Origin: a virus
DNA: 22,360 nt
Virus record (IMG/VR): IMGVR_UViG_3300030107_007467
Coordinates: 1-22,360 of that record
Direction: 5' to 3' (one strand)
In this document: positions 1,070 to 21,216 of the stretch, piece by piece
Layout of the letters: the number at the start of each line of letters is the position of its first letter
Numbering within the stretch: the first letter of the stretch is position 1
Translations under genes and position numbers: made by a program
Notes under the pieces: model-generated
What the model was told of the DNA's origin: nothing
Database searches by the model: none
Seen by the model: only the letters and a program-made list of their open reading frames with translations

Positions 1070-1259
1070 CAAGTTTTTCTTCTAACACTAGAATTTTTTC
1101 TTTTGCAGAAGCTATCTTTTCAATCATAGCATCCATAGATTTTATAATATCAGGATGTTCTGCAACACCTACAGAGTTGTATAGGTAGTTTTCTAAGTTA
1201 GCAGTAGCTGTAGCTATCTCTGCTTCGTAAGTCATTTTAAGAGCTACTAAGTAGTCCAT
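1056..1259 (-). CDS. Small helical protein of the thyX cassette, copy 1
   Basis: A 67-residue, probably all-helical protein of unknown function. It is clearly a paralog of the product of 10652-10858: both share the block NSVGVAEHPDIIKS at about residues 28-41 and an N-terminal block of the form ALKxTYEAxIATAxANL. It directly follows thyX copy 1, with the ATG overlapping the thyX stop by one base. The other copy also follows a thyX gene, with an oxygenase gene between. The repeated association suggests a role linked to thymidylate synthesis or a cassette duplicated as a unit. Confidence 0.75.
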   Translation of the reverse strand: MDYLVALKMTYEAEIATATANLENYLYNSVGVAEHPDIIKSMDAMIEKIASAKEKILVLEEKLDERS

Positions 1260-1906
1260 CAGTTATTCTCCTCAGTTAAAACTTTCCAAGATATTTTAAA
1301 ATCTTCTGTCTCAGCTATCTCACTACTAATAAGCTGAGCAATTTCCTGACACTCTTTCTGGGCATCATCGTGATCTCTAAGTTTTACTATCCTGGCAAAA
1401 GCCGCAAGAGATCCTGTCCAAATCCATTCTGTCATCATACTCTGAGGCAGAACCATTCTAGCTTGTTCCGGCGCTCCTCCTTTCTCAAGGAGTGTATCAT
1501 ATAACAGTTCTGAAGCTTTTAAAAGCTTTGTGTAACTAGAAAAAAGAATGTCATCGTATACAATTATATCATCAGATGAGCCTTGTTTCTTGTTCTCTGC
1601 TCTCTTCCGCCATACCGGAGGGGTATAGAAAGAGACATCAGAGTCTACGTATCTTCTACTAACTTCATTCCAAACTAATCCTACCTGATGCTTGCCTAAC
1701 TGTCTAGCAATAAACACAGGTGCTGAGATCCTAAACTGTAGTTGAGCATGTCCGAAAGGAGTCCAGTGTTTGTGTTTAGCTAAGTAAGCTATCAAACCTT
1801 CATCAGATTTACGCATCTTTGAAATTTCTTTATTAAAAGAAACACGAGCAGCATTAACAACGGTTTTATCGCTGCCCATGAAATCTATTAGTTTAACTCT
1901 AAGCAA
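1259..1906 (-). CDS. thyX: Flavin-dependent thymidylate synthase ThyX, copy 1
   Basis: A 215-residue ThyX, which makes dTMP from dUMP using FAD, NADPH and methylene-tetrahydrofolate. Visible family features are the N-terminal MGSDxxVVNAARVSF block (residues 10-24), HWTPFGH at 47-53 and the substrate-binding segment GKHQVGLVWNEVSRRY at 71-86. In the classical motif RHRx7S the first residues are RHR; here they are KHQ with one extra residue, so this is a divergent phage-type ThyX. The start is TTG at 1906, overlapping the end of gene 1899-2036; copy 2 also uses TTG at the equivalent site. A second thyX at 11548-12186 is very similar along its full length. It lies downstream of the ribonucleotide reductase in the operon, consistent with supplying dTTP for phage DNA. 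Confidence 0.93.
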   Translation of the reverse strand: MLRVKLIDFMGSDKTVVNAARVSFNKEISKMRKSDEGLIAYLAKHKHWTPFGHAQLQFRISAPVFIARQLGKHQVGLVWNEVSRRYVDSDVSFYTPPVWRKRAENKKQGSSDDIIVYDDILFSSYTKLLKASELLYDTLLEKGGAPEQARMVLPQSMMTEWIWTGSLAAFARIVKLRDHDDAQKECQEIAQLISSEIAETEDFKISWKVLTEENN

Positions 1907-4065: not shown

Positions 4066-4348
4066 TGTAAAGCTCCAATAACTTTTTTTCGTACCACGCA
4101 GCCTTATTTAAATCCTCTACGCCATTTTTATAAGGATACCTCCAACGGTACTTCAGAGAGTTCCCGCGAAGGTATCCAATATATTCTTCTGTAGAAAGCA
4201 TTGCTTTAATACCGTCAATACATTCTATATCACCCTTATTATAGTGGGGAGGTTTGTTAACCATATCATGGTTATGGTGTAGAGGGGCTTTACCGTAATC
4301 GTTTCTCAATGAATCCCATTCTACGGGTTTAATATTATCAATACTCAT
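4043..4348 (-). CDS. DUF3310-family phage protein
   Basis: A 101-residue protein whose C-terminal two thirds match the phage DUF3310 signature: VNKPPHYNKGDIECIDGIK at about 30-48, then a GYLRGNSLKYRWRYPYKNG segment at about 58-76, followed by DLNKAAWYEKKL. DUF3310 proteins are common in T7-like and cyanophage replication regions and are often annotated as nucleotide-kinase-like, although the function is not proven. The N-terminal 30 residues look unstructured. The start ATG overlaps the stop of the endonuclease I gene by four bases. Confidence 0.85.
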   Translation of the reverse strand: MSIDNIKPVEWDSLRNDYGKAPLHHNHDMVNKPPHYNKGDIECIDGIKAMLSTEEYIGYLRGNSLKYRWRYPYKNGVEDLNKAAWYEKKLLELYSEKEIGP

Positions 4349-10858: not shown

Positions 10859-11551
10859 TTAGTTCTCCTTATACCCTACAGGGTAACAATTAAAATTAGC
10901 AGCAACAGTTCTACGTTCTCCTTCACCCTTAAATGGGTATACCATATGCTGAAGCCACGAAGGAAAGAAGTATATCTTACCTACTTCTGGTTTCAAAATC
11001 ATAGCTTGCGTGGGCTTTAATCTTTCTTTATCTAGAACAGAATTTTGACCAAAGACAAACTCTAGAAATCCATCGCAACAGCCTGAAGCATTATTATAAT
11101 TAAAAGTATTTTCTGAAGGACTAGGTAAGTTCTTTATTTGTTCAGGAACTTTTGTCCAAGTAGTACAGGATACTCCCATTATAGTTTCTGTGCCGTGATC
11201 ATGTATAGGGTTATAGTCTCCCTCATAACTATGTACTGACCAAAGCTCTTCAATCTGTACACTTCTATCAGTAAGTAGCTGCTGACCTGTATGAGTAAAA
11301 AACTCAGAGATATATTTAGCAGCAATACTACGAAGTGTAGCGGATAGATTTATAAGCTTATCATCTTCTGAATTAATTCTAAGTTGCTCTCCTTTCTGTA
11401 TCTGCCCAACTAAAGTATCTGAGGCTGTCTTCCTATTATCTTGCTGAAGAAGATCGTCTAGATATTTATTTGTAGACTCAATAATATCTTGAGGAAGCTC
11501 TGCTTCTAAAACAAATACAGAGGGCATGGGTAATGTTTTAAACTTAATCAT
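10859..11551 (-). CDS. Putative 2OG-Fe(II) oxygenase (PF13759-like)
   Basis: A 230-residue protein with the pattern of the putative 2-oxoglutarate/Fe(II) dioxygenase family often carried by phages: EELWSVHSYEGDYNPIHDHG (102-120 region, with the H-x-H ligands), then FFPSWLQHMVYPF (195-207) with the distal His202, and ERRTVAANFN (212-221) with the 2-oxoglutarate-binding Arg. Many such proteins hydroxylate proteins or modify nucleic acids; the substrate here is unknown. ATG at 11551 is chosen because it overlaps the thyX stop (ATGA) and has GGGAGG about 10 bases upstream. It is inserted between thyX copy 2 and its small partner gene. Confidence 0.8.
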   Translation of the reverse strand: MIKFKTLPMPSVFVLEAELPQDIIESTNKYLDDLLQQDNRKTASDTLVGQIQKGEQLRINSEDDKLINLSATLRSIAAKYISEFFTHTGQQLLTDRSVQIEELWSVHSYEGDYNPIHDHGTETIMGVSCTTWTKVPEQIKNLPSPSENTFNYNNASGCCDGFLEFVFGQNSVLDKERLKPTQAMILKPEVGKIYFFPSWLQHMVYPFKGEGERRTVAANFNCYPVGYKEN

Positions 11552-12186
11552 CGCGTAAGAACCTCCCATGATATTTTAAAGTTTTCAGTTTTCTTTACTT
11601 CTGCACTTATAAGTTGAGCAACCTCCTGACATTCTTTCTGTGCATCAGGATGATCTCTTAGCTTTACTACCCTAGCAAAAGCTGCAAGAGATCCTGTCCA
11701 AATCCACTCTGTCATCATACTCTGGGGCAGAACCATTCTAGCTTGCTCTGGGGCTGCGCCCTTTTCAAGTAATATATCATACAACAGTTCTGAAGCTTTT
11801 AAAAGCTTTTCGTAGTTAGAAAACAGAAGATCATCTTGTACAATAATGTCATCAGATGATCCTTGTTTCTTATTCTCTGCTTTCTTTCTCCATACCTGAG
11901 GGGTATGGAAAGAGACACCAGAGTCTACGTACCTTCTACTAACTTCATTCCAGACCAATCCTACCTGATGCTTGCCTAATTGTCTAGCAACAAATACCGG
12001 GGCTGAAATCCTGAACGATAGTTGAGCATGTCCAAAGGGAGTCCAGTGCCCATGTTTAGCTAGATAAGCTATAAGTTTTTTGTCAGACTCCCGAAGCTTT
12101 GTAATTTTTTTATTAAAAGATACTCGGGCTGCATTAACAACCGCCACATCGCTACCCATTTTATGTATTAGTTCTACTCTAGACAA
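11548..12186 (-). CDS. thyX: Flavin-dependent thymidylate synthase ThyX, copy 2
   Basis: A 212-residue ThyX, colinear with copy 1 (1259-1906) and differing mainly by conservative changes. The same divergent motif GKHQVGLVWNEVSRRY is at 71-86, and the C-terminal AARMVLP-like block appears as QARMVLPQSMMTEW. Both use a TTG start inside the stop region of the preceding small membrane-protein gene. Both look intact, so neither is an obvious pseudogene. Redundancy could reflect dosage, different expression times (this copy lies earlier in the operon) or a change in substrate specificity. Confidence 0.93.
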   Translation of the reverse strand: MSRVELIHKMGSDVAVVNAARVSFNKKITKLRESDKKLIAYLAKHGHWTPFGHAQLSFRISAPVFVARQLGKHQVGLVWNEVSRRYVDSGVSFHTPQVWRKKAENKKQGSSDDIIVQDDLLFSNYEKLLKASELLYDILLEKGAAPEQARMVLPQSMMTEWIWTGSLAAFARVVKLRDHPDAQKECQEVAQLISAEVKKTENFKISWEVLTR

Positions 12187-12325
12187 GGATAAACACCATG
12201 ACAGATAAAATAAATAAAAAGAAAGCTACTAAAATAACTTGTTCTTTCTCAGTTGAAAATCCAAAGTAAATATCTACAAATATATCTTCAAAGAAACTCT
12301 TTAAAAGAGCTATAAATTTTAACAT
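12179..12325 (-). CDS. Small single-pass membrane protein of the thyX cassette, copy 2
   Basis: A 48-residue ORF: amphipathic N-terminus (MLKFIALLKSFFEDIF), STEKEQ at about 24-29, then a hydrophobic helix (VILVAFFLFILSVMVFILV). It is paralogous to 1899-2036. AGGAGG lies 9 bases upstream of the ATG, one of the best ribosome sites in the window. The stop overlaps the TTG of thyX copy 2. Short conserved length, strong ribosome site and repeated linkage to thyX make it a real gene. Function unknown. Confidence 0.75.
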   Translation of the reverse strand: MLKFIALLKSFFEDIFVDIYFGFSTEKEQVILVAFFLFILSVMVFILV

Positions 12326-18062: not shown

Positions 18063-18269
18063 TTATTTTACCTTTGTGATGATGCCATTTTCGAGGGTTA
18101 CTTCAGCAAAAAACTCTCTTTTGTGTCCAGTTATATGAGGTCTGTTACAGCCTACAAGCTCTCCAGTCTCTACATACTCAGGACCAAACATAGAGGTCTC
18201 TTGATATATAAGCCTACTGCCGATGTTCTCCTTAAGATTTTTCTTTGAGGGGTAGTCAAATATAAGCAT
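18063..18269 (-). CDS. Hypothetical phage protein downstream of hairpin H1
   Basis: A 68-residue protein. A longer GTG frame (to 18314) runs through the hairpin H1 and is rejected, because ATG at 18269 has AGGAG 6 bases upstream just beyond the stem. MLIFDYPSKKNLKENIGSRL at the start and GCNRPHITGHKREFFAEV in the middle; no known domain. Unlike the genes below the other two conserved-loop hairpins it is not a paralog of 20052-20441. Confidence 0.7.
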   Translation of the reverse strand: MLIFDYPSKKNLKENIGSRLIYQETSMFGPEYVETGELVGCNRPHITGHKREFFAEVTLENGIITKVK

Positions 18270-18283
18270 CGCTTCTCCTTCGG

Positions 18284-18348
18284 GACCAAGGGTCTCTAAA
18301 AACTCTGGAATCACTTCGTTCTTCCAGAGTTTTTAGAGACCCTTGGTC
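18284..18348. repeat. Hairpin H1 of the conserved-loop family
   Basis: A perfect inverted repeat: 25-bp arms (18284-18308 and 18324-18348) plus AA/TT give a 27-bp stem around the 11-base loop TCACTTCGTTC (18311-18321). The stop codon of gene 18347-18571 lies at its outer edge and the ribosome site of gene 18063-18269 just beyond the other edge. No T tract follows, so it is not a standard terminator. Read leftward, the loop is GAACGAAGTGA and contains C-GAA-G, a sequence known to make very stable DNA triloops. Confidence 0.95.
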
Positions 18349-18571
18349 ACTCCTTATATACTCGGTAGGTCACAAGCTGCAATATAATACCCAGAATTAT
18401 ATAGAGAAAGGGTATAGAATATGCAAACACTTTGTCTCTCGGGGTTACAGTACCTCCCCATTCTACTATTGAGTGAGCAGCTACAGCAGTCTCGGTGATT
18501 AAAAGAACACCAGATATTATACAGTAAGTACTGGCGAGTGCTGCTAAACTAATAATTATATATCTGATCAT
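18347..18571 (-). CDS. Two-helix membrane protein
   Basis: A 74-residue protein with hydrophobic segments at about 3-25 and 51-69 and a polar loop between (VEWGGTVTPRDKVF), ending in a basic tail. The ATG overlaps the upstream stop (ATGA). It resembles generic phage small membrane proteins; function unknown. Confidence 0.65.
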   Translation of the reverse strand: MIRYIIISLAALASTYCIISGVLLITETAVAAHSIVEWGGTVTPRDKVFAYSIPFLYIILGIILQLVTYRVYKE

Positions 18572-18759
18572 TGCTTTGCCTCAATGAGTTTATTCTTCAG
18601 ATTTACTGGTGCAGTATGTCCTAAATGTTTGATTATTATTTCGTTCTGAGCATCTATACTTTCGTGGATTTCAATGATCCTCTTGAGTACTTCTACCTGC
18701 TCTGTTAATTTGTCGATTAATTCCTGCTGAGATTCCAACAAACCATTTACATCTATCAA
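18568..18759 (-). CDS. Small coiled-coil protein
   Basis: A 63-residue protein with a long leucine/isoleucine heptad region (about residues 7-38), likely a dimeric coiled coil. The TTG start at 18759 overlaps the upstream TGA (TTGA) and has AAGGAG 7 bases upstream, which supports it. Unknown function. Confidence 0.6.
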   Translation of the reverse strand: MIDVNGLLESQQELIDKLTEQVEVLKRIIEIHESIDAQNEIIIKHLGHTAPVNLKNKLIEAKQ

Positions 18760-19028
18760 TGTACTTCTCCTTCTTCTATGACAAAGCCCCCTTCTTTACA
18801 AAGGGCAAGAAACATTTCCATAGAGTCAATTTTACTTAATACCTCTGACTCCGCTAACCATATCTCTGTTAATTTTGGGCCTTGTTGCTTTAAAGTCTCA
18901 AGAATATTCTCTTTGAATCTTACCTCACAAAACTTTAAAGAAAAAAGTACTTGAGTAGGAAAAAGATTTTCTTCTATTGCTTTGCAAAAAAGATCCCAAA
19001 GCTCAATTTGAAACTCTTGTTCTGTCAT
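18756..19028 (-). CDS. Hypothetical helical phage protein
   Basis: A 90-residue, acidic, mostly helical protein with several Cys (LWDLFCKAIEENLF, LKFCEVRF). ATG at 19028 is preferred: it overlaps the stop of gene 19025-19249 (ATGA) and has GGGAG 8 bases upstream; the TTG at 19040 does not. Not recognised. Confidence 0.65.
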   Translation of the reverse strand: MTEQEFQIELWDLFCKAIEENLFPTQVLFSLKFCEVRFKENILETLKQQGPKLTEIWLAESEVLSKIDSMEMFLALCKEGGFVIEEGEVH

Positions 19029-19249
19029 ACATACTCCCAAATTTTAGAAGGAACTGTGTCCATTTCAAAATAGATCTGGACTTCATCTTGTGTTATGTAT
19101 CCATGCTTATAAGTATATCTCCTTAAAGCACGACGGAACTTTCTACAAAGATACTCCTGTTCGTTAGAAGTTTCTGGTTTCATCAAGGCAGCAAAGTGAC
19201 TAGCGACTGCACTGAACTGCCGGTGGCTTACGGGTCTCAGTAAATCCAT
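19025..19249 (-). CDS. Early protein, paralog of the product of 20052-20441
   Basis: A 74-residue protein. Without gaps, residues 9-74 match residues 15-80 of the 20052-20441 product at 23 of 66 positions (QFxAV, AAL, PE, FRxAL, GxxT, VQ, VP). It lacks the long Lys/Ala/Pro tail of that protein. The fold is probably a small helical bundle. Its ribosome site GAGGAG (19260-19255) is the outer end of hairpin H2, so translation should depend on opening that hairpin. Function unknown. Confidence 0.75.
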   Translation of the reverse strand: MDLLRPVSHRQFSAVASHFAALMKPETSNEQEYLCRKFRRALRRYTYKHGYITQDEVQIYFEMDTVPSKIWEYV

Positions 19250-19254
19250 TCAGA

Positions 19255-19305
19255 CTCCTCTAAAATCTCTAGAATCACTTCGTTCTTCTAGAGATTTTAG
19301 AGGAG
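19255..19305. repeat. Hairpin H2 of the conserved-loop family, masking a ribosome site
   Basis: A perfect inverted repeat: 18-bp arms (19255-19272, 19288-19305) plus AA/TT give a 20-bp stem with the same 11-base loop TCACTTCGTTC as H1, although the arms are different in sequence. The stop of gene 19297-19476 lies in one arm, and the Shine-Dalgarno of gene 19025-19249 is the outer end of the other arm. This suggests that a ribosome ending the upstream gene opens the stem for the next gene. Confidence 0.95.
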
Positions 19306-19476
19306 CCAAGGACCAGCCTCTATAACTATAAAATCTATTTCCTCCTTTGTAAATATATAATCAGGATACCTACTTTGACCTCGACATTCCATGCATATAT
19401 AGAGACCTCTTATATGTTCCCAAGGAATATCAATACCTCCAGAGTGAAGCCCTAAATCATTGAAATACATTGTCAT
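19297..19476 (-). CDS. Hypothetical small protein
   Basis: A 59-residue ORF (MTMYFNDLGLHSGGIDIPWE start) with one CMEC pair (about 28-31). ATG at 19476, or 19470 two codons later. GGGG lies close upstream. It overlaps the preceding gene by 20 bases, and its last codons and stop are inside hairpin H2. Unknown function. Confidence 0.6.
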   Translation of the reverse strand: MTMYFNDLGLHSGGIDIPWEHIRGLYICMECRGQSRYPDYIFTKEEIDFIVIEAGPWLL

Positions 19477-19612
19477 TAACCCCGTGCCCTATACGATATG
19501 CTGTCTCAAGAACGCTTTCTTTTTGCTGTCGTTGCGCCTCCTTTTCTTGAGCCTTTTGAATTTCTTTTGCCCACCTTTCTTCAAGATACTGATAGAATAC
19601 ATCTTCAATCAT
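19457..19612 (-). CDS. Hypothetical small helical protein
   Basis: A 51-residue, Gln/Glu/Lys-rich, probably helical protein (YLEERWAKEIQKAQEKEAQR). The ATG has GAGG 8 bases upstream. The 29-base leader is repeated almost exactly before the next gene upstream, 19634-19966. Unknown function. Confidence 0.6.
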   Translation of the reverse strand: MIEDVFYQYLEERWAKEIQKAQEKEAQRQQKESVLETAYRIGHGVNDNVFQ

Positions 19613-19638
19613 ATTAAAACCTCAGGATAAAAACTAAA
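19610..19638 (-). promoter_or_regulatory. Repeated translation leader, copy 1
   Basis: This 29-base stretch matches 19964-19992 at 28 positions. Leftward it reads as TTTAGTTTTTA, then CCTGAGGTTTTAATATG, with GAGG as ribosome site and the ATG of gene 19457-19612. The TAG stop of gene 19634-19966 lies in it. Confidence 0.8.
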
Positions 19639-19966
19639 TCTCGCCTTCGTGGATTGCTTGACCCGTGTGCCTCCCGTCATCAAATCCCCCGGTATACTTA
19701 TTACATAACGTCCAATTTACCATTTCTGCTATGGTCCGTCTTACATAATGTCCAACATTCATAGTATTGTCTTCCAATAATATAAAGTGATGACTGGATG
19801 CATTCTCATCAACATAAGAATAAAACTCCTCACTCAACTTTTCTATCACCGCATCAATAAAAGCATCCAGCACATCGTCGGATACATAACCCTTACCGCC
19901 ATAGTAAATATCACCCTTACTATAGACGTTTTTAATTTCTTTAGCAGACAATGCTATCTCGTACAT
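19634..19966 (-). CDS. Hypothetical phage protein
   Basis: A 110-residue, acidic, mixed alpha/beta protein with a His-containing centre (ASSHHFILLEDN) and TGGFDDGRHTGQAIHEGE at the end. Preceded by the repeated leader with GAGG. It is the first gene beyond the terminator at 20010-20041, so its expression needs readthrough or an undetected promoter. Not recognised. Confidence 0.65.
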   Translation of the reverse strand: MYEIALSAKEIKNVYSKGDIYYGGKGYVSDDVLDAFIDAVIEKLSEEFYSYVDENASSHHFILLEDNTMNVGHYVRRTIAEMVNWTLCNKYTGGFDDGRHTGQAIHEGEI

Positions 19967-19992
19967 ATTAAAACCTCAGGCTAAAAACTAAA
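19964..19992 (-). promoter_or_regulatory. Repeated translation leader, copy 2
   Basis: Near-identical to 19610-19638 (one mismatch). It provides the GAGG ribosome site and ATG for gene 19634-19966. The duplication of the leader, but not of the genes behind it, suggests a spread of a translation-initiation module or a shared RNA-binding site. Confidence 0.8.
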
Positions 19993-20009
19993 AGGAAAAT
20001 TGCTCGCGT

Positions 20010-20041
20010 AAAAAAAAATGAGCAGTTTATAGCCATGCTCA
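20010..20041 (-). terminator. Intrinsic terminator after the first early gene
   Basis: Leftward: TGAGCA (20041-20036), an 11-base loop, TGCTCA (20024-20019), then nine T. It lies 11 bases after the stop of gene 20052-20441 and should separate that gene from the rest of the early operon, making it the most abundantly transcribed early gene. Confidence 0.85.
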
Positions 20042-20051
20042 GGGCTGGGTG

Positions 20052-20441
20052 TCACATATCGTTCAGGAGTGTCTGCAAGGCGTCCAGTTGTGCCTGCAAT
20101 TTCGCGATTTTCGCATCACGAGGGTCAGCTTTAGGCTTCGCAGCCTTCGGCTTCGCCTTAGCCTTCGGCTTTGCCTTAGCCTTCGGCTTCGCTTCAGCTT
20201 GCAGCAGCTTCATCAGCGGAGCTGGAACCTTATCGGCCTTGAGCGCCTTTTGCACATCACCCATCGTTAAAAAGCCGTTGGCTTTTGTATGGATCGCCAA
20301 AGCTTTACGAAAAGCCCGGTAAAGCTCGTAGCGGGTCTTATCCTTCTCGGGACGCAGCAGAGCTGCATAACGATGGCAAACGGCGTTGAACTGCTTAAAC
20401 GTTGCCTGCTTGCTTGGGTCTACGGTGAAGTTGGTCGCCAT
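20052..20441 (-). CDS. First early protein with a histone H1-like Lys/Ala/Pro tail
   Basis: A 129-residue protein in three parts. Residues 14-80 form the domain shared with the product of 19025-19249. Residues 83-106 form a tail of repeated KAKPKA units, like histone H1 or bacterial H1-like proteins. A short final helix (about 107-129) has leucine spacing for a coiled coil. The tail implies DNA or RNA binding. The gene is visibly more GC-rich than its neighbours, and the tail is encoded by tandem repeats, pointing to a different origin or recent repeat expansion. The ATG at 20441 has only a GAGAGA-type upstream sequence that is partly inside hairpin H3. It is followed by a strong terminator. 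It is probably the immediate-early gene of the leftward operon; function unknown. Confidence 0.8.
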   Translation of the reverse strand: MATNFTVDPSKQATFKQFNAVCHRYAALLRPEKDKTRYELYRAFRKALAIHTKANGFLTMGDVQKALKADKVPAPLMKLLQAEAKPKAKAKPKAKAKPKAAKPKADPRDAKIAKLQAQLDALQTLLNDM

Positions 20442-20453
20442 ATATTCTCTCTC

Positions 20454-20515
20454 TCTCTTGGGTGTCTTTTAAATCTCTTTCACTTGTTCAAGAGATTTAA
20501 AAGACACCCAAGAGA
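20454..20515. repeat. Hairpin H3 of the conserved-loop family
   Basis: A perfect 26-bp stem (20454-20479 with 20490-20515) closing the loop TCACTTGTTC, the H1/H2 loop minus one base. A 2-base bulge then allows 6 more pairs out to 20448-20523. The stem sequence is unrelated to H1 and H2, and the loop-closing pairs are TT/AA instead of AA/TT. It lies directly before gene 20052-20441. Confidence 0.95.
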
Positions 20516-20540
20516 TAGAGAGAAAAATTTTTTGGGTTCA

Positions 20541-20600
20541 AAATTTTCTAAAATTCCTCCTAAGATCTCTAGAGATCTTAGGAGGAATTTTAGAAAATTT
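20541..20600. repeat. Palindrome P1, 60 bp perfect, no loop
   Basis: Every base from 20541 to 20570 pairs with 20571 to 20600. The centre is CTCTAGAG. Loopless perfect palindromes of this length are rare and normally unstable in bacteria because of cruciform-cutting nucleases. Confidence 0.97.
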
Positions 20601-20644
20601 CTACATGTACGCTCGTATACGCACGAGAATTTCTGGATAATTTA

Positions 20645-20710
20645 AAATTTGCTACCCTTCTTCACTTTTAAAGATCTAGATCTTTAAAAGTGAAGAAGGG
20701 TAGCAAATTT
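20645..20710. repeat. Palindrome P2, 66 bp perfect, no loop
   Basis: 33-bp arms, centre between 20677 and 20678, core ATCTAGAT. An 11-base direct repeat AATTTCTGGAT occurs at 20628-20638 and 20706-20716, bracketing the palindrome and resembling a target duplication, although the right copy overlaps the arm. Confidence 0.97.
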
Positions 20711-20725
20711 CTGGATGTCCTCTAA

Positions 20726-20780
20726 AGTATTATGAGTTTTTTAAAATCTTCAGGGAAGATTATTAAAAACTTATAATACT
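20726..20780. repeat. Inverted repeat P3, 26-bp arms with 3 mismatches
   Basis: Arms 20726-20751 and 20755-20780 match at 23 of 26 positions around the loop AGG. AT-rich; the only clearly imperfect one among the larger repeats. Confidence 0.85.
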
Positions 20781-20787
20781 ACTTAAA

Positions 20788-20815
20788 TATTTAAAAACTC
20801 TAGAGTTTTTAAATA
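20788..20815. repeat. Palindrome P4, 28 bp perfect, no loop
   Basis: 14-bp arms around the centre CTCTAGAG, the same core as P1. Confidence 0.92.
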
Positions 20816-20820
20816 AAAAT

Positions 20821-20858
20821 ACAGACTCTAGAATATTCTAGAATATTTTAGAGTCTGT
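20821..20858. repeat. Palindrome P5, 38 bp, one G/T mismatch, no loop
   Basis: 19-bp arms with a single mismatched pair; centre TTCTAGAA. Its right end merges with TGTCAA (20856-20861), which read leftward is a TTGACA -35-like box. Confidence 0.92.
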
Positions 20859-20871
20859 CAAGTTTTGAGGC

Positions 20872-20925
20872 CAGCCTCTGGAATCTCAAAAGATTTCTGG
20901 AAATCTTTTGAGATTCCAGAGGCTG
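20872..20925. repeat. Inverted repeat P6, 25-bp stem, 4-base loop
   Basis: Perfect arms 20872-20896 and 20901-20925 around CTGG. The inner part TCAAAAGATTT is shared with P7. Confidence 0.95.
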
Positions 20926-20928
20926 CTT

Positions 20929-20977
20929 CCCCTCAGAGATTCAAAAGATTTATGAAATCTTTTGAATCTCTGAGGGG
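20929..20977. repeat. Inverted repeat P7, 23-bp stem, 3-base loop
   Basis: Perfect arms 20929-20951 and 20955-20977 around ATG. It lies three bases from P6 and shares the inner 11 bases of its stem, while the outer stems differ. Confidence 0.95.
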
Positions 20978-21155: not shown

Positions 21156-21184
21156 AGTATATAGTTGAAAATTAGTTTTGTCAA
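21156..21184 (-). promoter_or_regulatory. Leftward sigma70-type promoter for the early operon
   Basis: TTGACA (21184-21179), 17-base spacer, TATACT (21161-21156): -35 perfect, -10 five of six. Transcription should start near 21149 and run through the iterons and hairpins into gene 20052-20441. Confidence 0.8.
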
Positions 21185-21187
21185 TAC

Positions 21188-21216
21188 TTGACAGAACTAA
21201 ATATAGAACCTATAAT
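21188..21216 (+). promoter_or_regulatory. Rightward sigma70 promoter, perfect consensus
   Basis: TTGACA (21188-21193), exactly 17 bases, TATAAT (21211-21216). Expected start of transcription is about 21222-21224, i.e. at the terS ATG, implying a leaderless or nearly leaderless mRNA. The -35 box is 3 bases from the -35 box of the leftward promoter and forms an inverted repeat with it. Confidence 0.88.

What the first reader, a model, noticed from the sequence alone, without database searches (positions are those of the whole stretch)
18284..20515. Family of three hairpins with a conserved loop and covarying stems
H1 (18284-18348), H2 (19255-19305) and H3 (20454-20515) have unrelated stems of 27, 20 and 26 bp, all perfectly paired, but the loop is TCACTTCGTTC in H1 and H2 and TCACTTGTTC in H3. 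The loop-closing pairs swap from AA/TT to TT/AA. Conserved loop plus covarying stem is the signature of a structured RNA or a folded single-strand DNA site recognised by a loop-binding protein, as in boxB antitermination or coat-protein operators. All three point the same way and lie in non-coding junctions upstream of leftward genes. No T tract follows, so they are not ordinary terminators.
Basis: partly seen in the sequence, partly recalled or inferred. Interest (0 to 1): 0.92.

Follow-up and report, generated by a model that had tools for sequence, protein, structure and literature searches.

The report
Shared-cap RNA hairpins between phage genes
The three hairpins belong to a widespread, apparently undescribed family of RNA stem-loops that sit between the early genes of many uncultured phages: the tip is conserved while the stem sequence is free to change as long as it still pairs, which points to a shared but still unknown way of handling phage messenger RNA.

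Summary
H1, H2 and H3 are perfect 27, 20 and 26 bp stems. On the coding strand of the leftward genes the loop is GAACGAAGTGA (H3: GAACAAGTGA). Scans and a covariance model found 63 distinct stems with this tip in about 30 viral records, including isolate HMO-2011. The tip is T-GA-[2 bp]-N(2-5)-[2 bp]-GA-A: tandem G·A, a mini-stem that also covaries, and a free apical loop. Copies lie in one early region per genome, on one strand, between a stop codon and the next start. An SD and start follow on the sense strand in 36 of 63 cases, on the other strand in 1. This supports an RNA-level element. Shine-Dalgarno masking (H2, H3, about 40% overall) is not general, so a plain translational operator does not fit all copies. 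I favour mRNA processing or stability between early genes; no factor is identified. Orthologous genes often lack the hairpin, and similar caps occur in dispersed Campylobacter repeats, so one dedicated loop-binding phage protein is possible but not shown. No Rfam family, and no paper in the searched library, describes it.

The parts
18284..18348 (-). H1 hairpin, 27 bp stem, loop GAACGAAGTGA (18311-18321)
   Evidence: model hit 35.2 bits
19255..19305 (-). H2 hairpin, 20 bp stem, loop GAACGAAGTGA (19275-19285); its 3' arm holds the Shine-Dalgarno GAGGAG
   Evidence: model hit 37 bits; SD pairing probability 1.0
20445..20524 (-). H3 hairpin, 26 bp perfect core (35 bp with one mismatch), loop GAACAAGTGA (20480-20489); 3' arm holds the purine-rich SD region
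   Evidence: model hit 29.6 bits; SD pairing probability 0.86
18063..18269 (-). gene after H1 (68 aa, PHROG 37117, unknown function)
   Evidence: homolog in L237 also follows a capped hairpin
19025..19249 (-). gene after H2 (74 aa), paralog of the H3 gene
20052..20441 (-). gene after H3 (129 aa, Lys/Ala/Pro linker), first gene of the leftward operon
21156..21184 (-). sigma-70-like leftward promoter TTGACA-17-TATACT (11/12)
   Evidence: consensus match only
20541..20977 (.). chain of six further palindromes with loops of 0-3 nt, in the presumed leader upstream of H3 (20541-20600, 20645-20710, 20788-20815, 20821-20858, 20872-20925, 20929-20977)

Best explanation
H1-H3 are copies of an intercistronic cis-acting RNA hairpin of phage early operons. 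Shown: a stem of about 20-29 paired positions per arm with free, covarying sequence; a conserved cap of tandem G·A, a covarying 2-bp mini-stem and a free apical loop; sense orientation, between the stop codon of one gene and the start of the next; one to seven copies in one early region of a genome. Inferred: the long double-stranded rod is a processing or stability point of the polycistronic early mRNA (an RNase III-like cut, or a protected end). The cap is read by a factor, or simply seals the rod. Where the 3' arm carries the Shine-Dalgarno sequence (H2, H3), opening or cutting the hairpin would also switch on translation.
For: Covariation of the stem with 94.8% paired cells. Stem-free scan 9/100 against 0.003. 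GA/GA is 60 of the 2x2-loop hairpins, next class 6, and the inner pairs covary. SD plus start on the GAAC strand 36/63, other strand 1/63, random 11%; an ORF of 45 codons or more ends within 90 nt upstream of the loop in 63/86. All model hits of a genome on one strand in one region. Median 23 paired positions per arm, about the length RNase III needs, with the length requirement taken from general knowledge. Self-cleaving ribozymes and tmRNA-like elements in the same region of several carriers.
Against: No transcript, cleavage or stability data. No RNase or binding factor identified. Orthologous genes often lack the hairpin. Related caps occur outside this context, in dispersed Campylobacter repeats and in coding linkers, so the cap need not mean mRNA processing. 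Part of the sequence set was chosen by loop string and pairing, which inflates the counts.
Confidence: 0.45

Rival explanations
1. Translational operators of a phage regulon: a phage-encoded protein binds the GA-capped loop, holds the hairpin shut and represses early genes. It would work like coat-protein operators or a RegA-type regulon.
For: Conserved loop with covarying stem; SD paired with the 5' arm in 21 of 51, including H2 and H3; several copies per genome; H2 and H3 precede paralogs.
Against: In 30 of 51 the SD is free; loop-to-start distances reach 94 nt; L404/L383 show no SD; no common RNA-binding protein found; hairpin gained and lost before the same gene.
Confidence: 0.23
2. DNA-level origin or role: the cap folds in single-stranded DNA and seeds fold-back or template-switch synthesis, which makes and keeps the stems perfect; an RNA role would be secondary or absent.
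For: Perfect stems of 20-35 bp with unrelated sequences and neighbouring perfect palindromes; the same cap in Campylobacter repeats on both strands and in coding linkers.
Against: Strand bias towards translation starts of 36:1 in the phages and confinement to one early region are not expected from a DNA-only process.
Confidence: 0.15
3. Processive antitermination sites (works like lambda nut/boxB or HK022 put) that let polymerase read through the early operon.
For: Leader and intergenic position in early operons and conserved loop.
Against: Up to seven copies per genome; the loop is not a boxB-type pentaloop; no boxA seen by eye; no N-like protein identified.
Confidence: 0.07
4. Intrinsic terminators or chance palindromes.
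For: They follow stop codons.
Against: No T tract at H1-H3; stem and cap statistics far from chance; often 20-70 nt before an SD and start.
Confidence: 0.02

Closest known systems
Extended start-associated sequences (ESAS) of cluster K mycobacteriophages (PMC3203893)
   Same: Repeated inverted repeats upstream of start codons of many phage genes, function unknown
   Different: There the 17-bp arms are conserved and the spacer varies, with little support for an RNA hairpin; here the loop is conserved and the arms covary
Phage T7 RNase III sites (general knowledge)
   Same: Intercistronic hairpins in an early polycistronic mRNA, long double strand
   Different: No conserved cap of this kind is known to me there; cleavage here is untested
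Lambda boxB / nut and RNA-phage coat-protein operators (general knowledge)
   Same: Conserved loop on an exchangeable stem in a phage leader
   Different: The loop here is tandem G·A plus a mini-stem, not a GNRA-like pentaloop or a bulged-A operator; no binding protein is known
T4 RegB target sites (PMC3014915)
   Same: Post-transcriptional control in intergenic regions of early genes
   Different: RegB cuts GGAG and is inhibited by RNA secondary structure; no capped hairpin is needed
Dispersed REP-like bacterial repeats
   Same: Some carry the same capped hairpin, for example in a Campylobacter MAG
   Different: Those are scattered on both strands with conserved flanks; the phage copies sit in one operon on one strand with free stems

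Membership tests
Rfam RNA families (release 15) | Score at or above a family's gathering cut-off at H1-H3 or the homologous hairpins | tested here: not met
   only sub-threshold miRNA-type matches at the window's palindromes; above threshold only tRNA, tmRNA, Pistol and hammerhead elsewhere in related loci
ESAS (cluster K phages) | Conserved arms, variable spacer | tested here: not met
   Arms covary, loop conserved; definition
ESAS (cluster K phages) | Position upstream of start codons of many genes | tested here: met
RNase III processing site | Intercistronic stem of about 20 bp or more | tested here: met
   Median 23 paired positions per arm; upstream stop codons within 90 nt in 63/86
RNase III processing site | Cleavage in the stem by RNase III | not testable with these tools
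   Needs transcript end mapping or in vitro cleavage
Lambda boxB / nut | GNRA-like pentaloop | tested here: not met
   11-nt GA-AC-NNN-GU-GA loop
Lambda boxB / nut | N-type arginine-rich binding peptide and boxA | not tested
   No systematic search was made
Coat-protein-type operator | Short hairpin over the ribosome-binding site with a cognate phage protein | tested here: inconclusive
   SD paired in 21 of 51, including H2 and H3, but free in 30 of 51; no protein known
Intrinsic terminator | T tract after the stem | tested here: not met
REP-like dispersed repeats | Scattered over the genome on both strands with a conserved palindrome | tested here: not met
   Phage copies on one strand in one region with free stems

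The most novel reading that the evidence does not exclude
A phage-wide post-transcriptional regulon: one class of trans-acting factor reads the tandem-G·A cap, and unrelated phages have independently placed or exchanged capped hairpins before their early genes, keeping the cap and letting the stems drift.
Probability: 0.25. Interest if true: 0.85.

Novelty: new variant of a known kind. Interest (0 to 1): 0.68.

Why it matters
It defines a structured RNA element with a simple search rule (stem, GA, 2 bp, short loop, 2 bp, GA, stem), shared by phages with unrelated terminases and very different leaders, including one isolate (HMO-2011). That makes it directly testable whether phages without familiar regulators control early mRNA by a common hairpin code. 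It would help to annotate early regions full of small unknown genes, and it may lead to a new RNA-binding or RNA-cutting factor.

Tried and rejected
Terminator (no T tract). Chance. N4-type virion RNA polymerase promoter hairpin: considered from memory, rejected because the stems are 20-35 bp and reach the SD. Cap stability as the sole reason: by nearest-neighbour RNA or DNA energy 36-65% of random 11-nt loops are as stable, though non-canonical pairs are poorly modelled. Association with one protein family: the H3 gene product has no relatives in the collection, the H1 gene family mostly lacks the hairpin, and the LNRKIN and Zn-finger proteins have no INPHARED match. A bS20-like fold of the LNRKIN domain (Foldseek E 0.37) is not supported by sequence. 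The AlphaFold model of the H3 product was too poor to use (pLDDT 49). A longest-ORF test of gene orientation was unreliable in G+C-rich contigs and was replaced by the SD/start test. HMO-2011-type isolates CRP-1, -3, -9, -235, -738, HTVC033P, HTVC103P and HTVC115P, and phages phiM6, RHph_N3_19, 1233 and CHOED, gave no hit with the model. Hits in coding linkers of prophage genes were set aside as a separate class. No paper in the searched library holds the loop sequence in a phage context.

Full report
Setting. The window is a 22,360-base viral record. Leftward genes encode ThyX (twice), ribonucleotide reductase, DNA polymerase I, primase/helicase, nucleases and an endolysin-like protein. A rightward terminase begins at about 21.2-21.8 kb. 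Its TerL N-terminus matches HMO-2011-type podophages of Pelagibacter, Roseobacter and SAR116. Divergent sigma-70-like promoters (12/12 rightward, 11/12 leftward) sit back to back at 21156-21216.

Observation. H1-H3 are present as described. On the strand of the leftward genes the loop is GAACGAAGTGA (H1, H2) or GAACAAGTGA (H3). H2 ends in GAGGAG-TCTGA-ATG, H3 in GAGAGAGAGAA-TAT-ATG, and after H1 come AAGGAG and the ATG at 18269. H2 and H3 precede paralogs.

More instances. An exact scan with the closing pairs gave two real relatives, L079 and L080. A scan that left the stem free but asked for GGAG and ATG downstream contained 9 of 100 sites with stems of 8 bp or more, against 0.003 expected. 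Two further scans brought the set to 63 distinct 29-mers. With the structure 9 bp, GA, 2 bp, loop, 2 bp, GA, 9 bp, 94.8% of cells pair, 10 of 11 pairs have changes on both sides, and the covariation score is 0.852 against 0.205 shuffled and at most 0.26 for slid versions. The scans fixed the loop and in part the first closing pairs, and candidates were filtered for pairing, so these counts lean towards the structure. The stem-free scan and the TerL relatives do not carry the stem bias.

The cap. Among hairpins of 9 bp or more with a 2x2 internal loop and a 2-bp inner stem, GA/GA is 60 and the next class 6 (the set is enriched for carriers). Among 26 with a loop string other than the one searched, the inner pairs are AC/GU 17, AU/AU 4, GU/AC 2, and CU/AG, CC/GG and GC/GC 1 each; the closing pair is T-A in 21. 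So the tandem G·A and the pairing are kept, while inner pairs and apical letters can change. HMO-2011 carries GAACATAGTGA (model hit 54103-54131) and two GATACTTTAGTGA hairpins.

Place and direction. Within each multi-copy record the model hits fall in a few kb and on one strand. An SD plus start codon follows on the GAAC strand in 36 of 63 distinct cases, counted without the loci fetched by the GGAG..ATG pattern, and on the other strand in 1; at random positions the rate is 11%. In 63 of 86 an ORF of 45 codons or more ends within 90 nt 5' of the loop. The median arm has 23 paired positions; the 3' arm is 69% purine and the 5' arm 32%. In 21 of 51 the SD is predicted to pair with the 5' arm. 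In L404/L383 no SD is seen before the start. These facts support an RNA element between co-transcribed genes and argue against SD masking as its common purpose.

Evolution. At the orthologous place before the H1 gene, L237 has GAACGTAGTGA on a different stem, but most of about 55 homologs have other hairpins or none. In loci found through the LNRKIN protein family most have the hairpin upstream (several were already known). The element is gained and lost, which is unlike an essential operator of one gene.

Wider occurrence. One Campylobacter MAG has 13 model hits on both strands. The copies read are a compound repeat with a 9-22 bp capped hairpin whose cap varies between GAAC/GUGA, GAGC/GCGA and GAGAU/AUCGA. 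The cap motif is therefore broader than these phages.

Mechanism. I commit to an intercistronic mRNA processing or stability hairpin at about 0.45. The RNA-level, sense-strand, intercistronic part is well supported; the processing step is inferred. A loop-read translational regulon is at 0.23 and a DNA-level origin at 0.15. Self-cleaving ribozymes and tmRNA-like elements in the same region of several carriers agree with a processing theme but do not prove it. No trans-acting factor was found.

Comparison. No Rfam family covers it. The nearest described element by position, ESAS of cluster K phages, has the opposite conservation pattern. I found no paper describing it in the searched open-access library; most subscription journals are not held there.

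Noticed in passing
window 20541-20977; L079 3431-3933: Chain of perfect palindromes with loops of 0-3 nt between divergent terminase and early operons, just upstream of the first capped hairpin. Only L079 and this window have five or more among the loci surveyed.
   Followed up: partly
L354 12313-12382 (Pistol) and 12123-12205; L490 2267-2343 (hammerhead II) and 4151-4233; L625, L626, L632, L636: Self-cleaving ribozymes and short tmRNA-like matches lie next to the LNRKIN gene and the capped hairpins in several phages.
   Followed up: partly
L704-L712 (Campylobacter sp. UBA1713 MAG, G038): Dispersed compound repeat: a GGGGTCGCAGGGGC hairpin, a tandem-GA-capped hairpin with a covarying stem of up to 22 bp, then an AAAAAAGCG..GCTTTTTT hairpin.
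   Followed up: partly
L433 4977-5888, L407, L411, L443, L463, L484, L501 and others: Same loop, antisense, with covarying 6-8 bp stems inside the coding linker (SSLRSE/D) of replication-like genes of many prophages.
   Followed up: partly
L183, L134, L485, L402, L340, L225, L133, roughly 80 nt before the capped hairpin: A second hairpin with a changing stem around a constant TCTATA-type centre precedes the Zn-finger gene.
   Followed up: no
L393, L405, L427, L437, L450, L474, L480: REP-like palindromes of the type ATTCT-GAACGAAGTGA-AGAAT or ATCCT..AGGAT followed by GAC/TGACA use the same loop with a 4-5 bp stem.
   Followed up: no
window 1259-1906 and 11548-12186: Two close ThyX-type thymidylate synthase genes in one phage fragment.
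   Followed up: no
L079 4000-4398, L490 3711-4055, L361 391-702 and relatives: LNRKIN-domain proteins after capped hairpins; the predicted helical fold is weakly like ribosomal protein bS20, without sequence support.
   Followed up: yes
L404 1-9750: The contig is one perfect 4875-bp inverted duplication, most likely an assembly artefact.
   Followed up: yes
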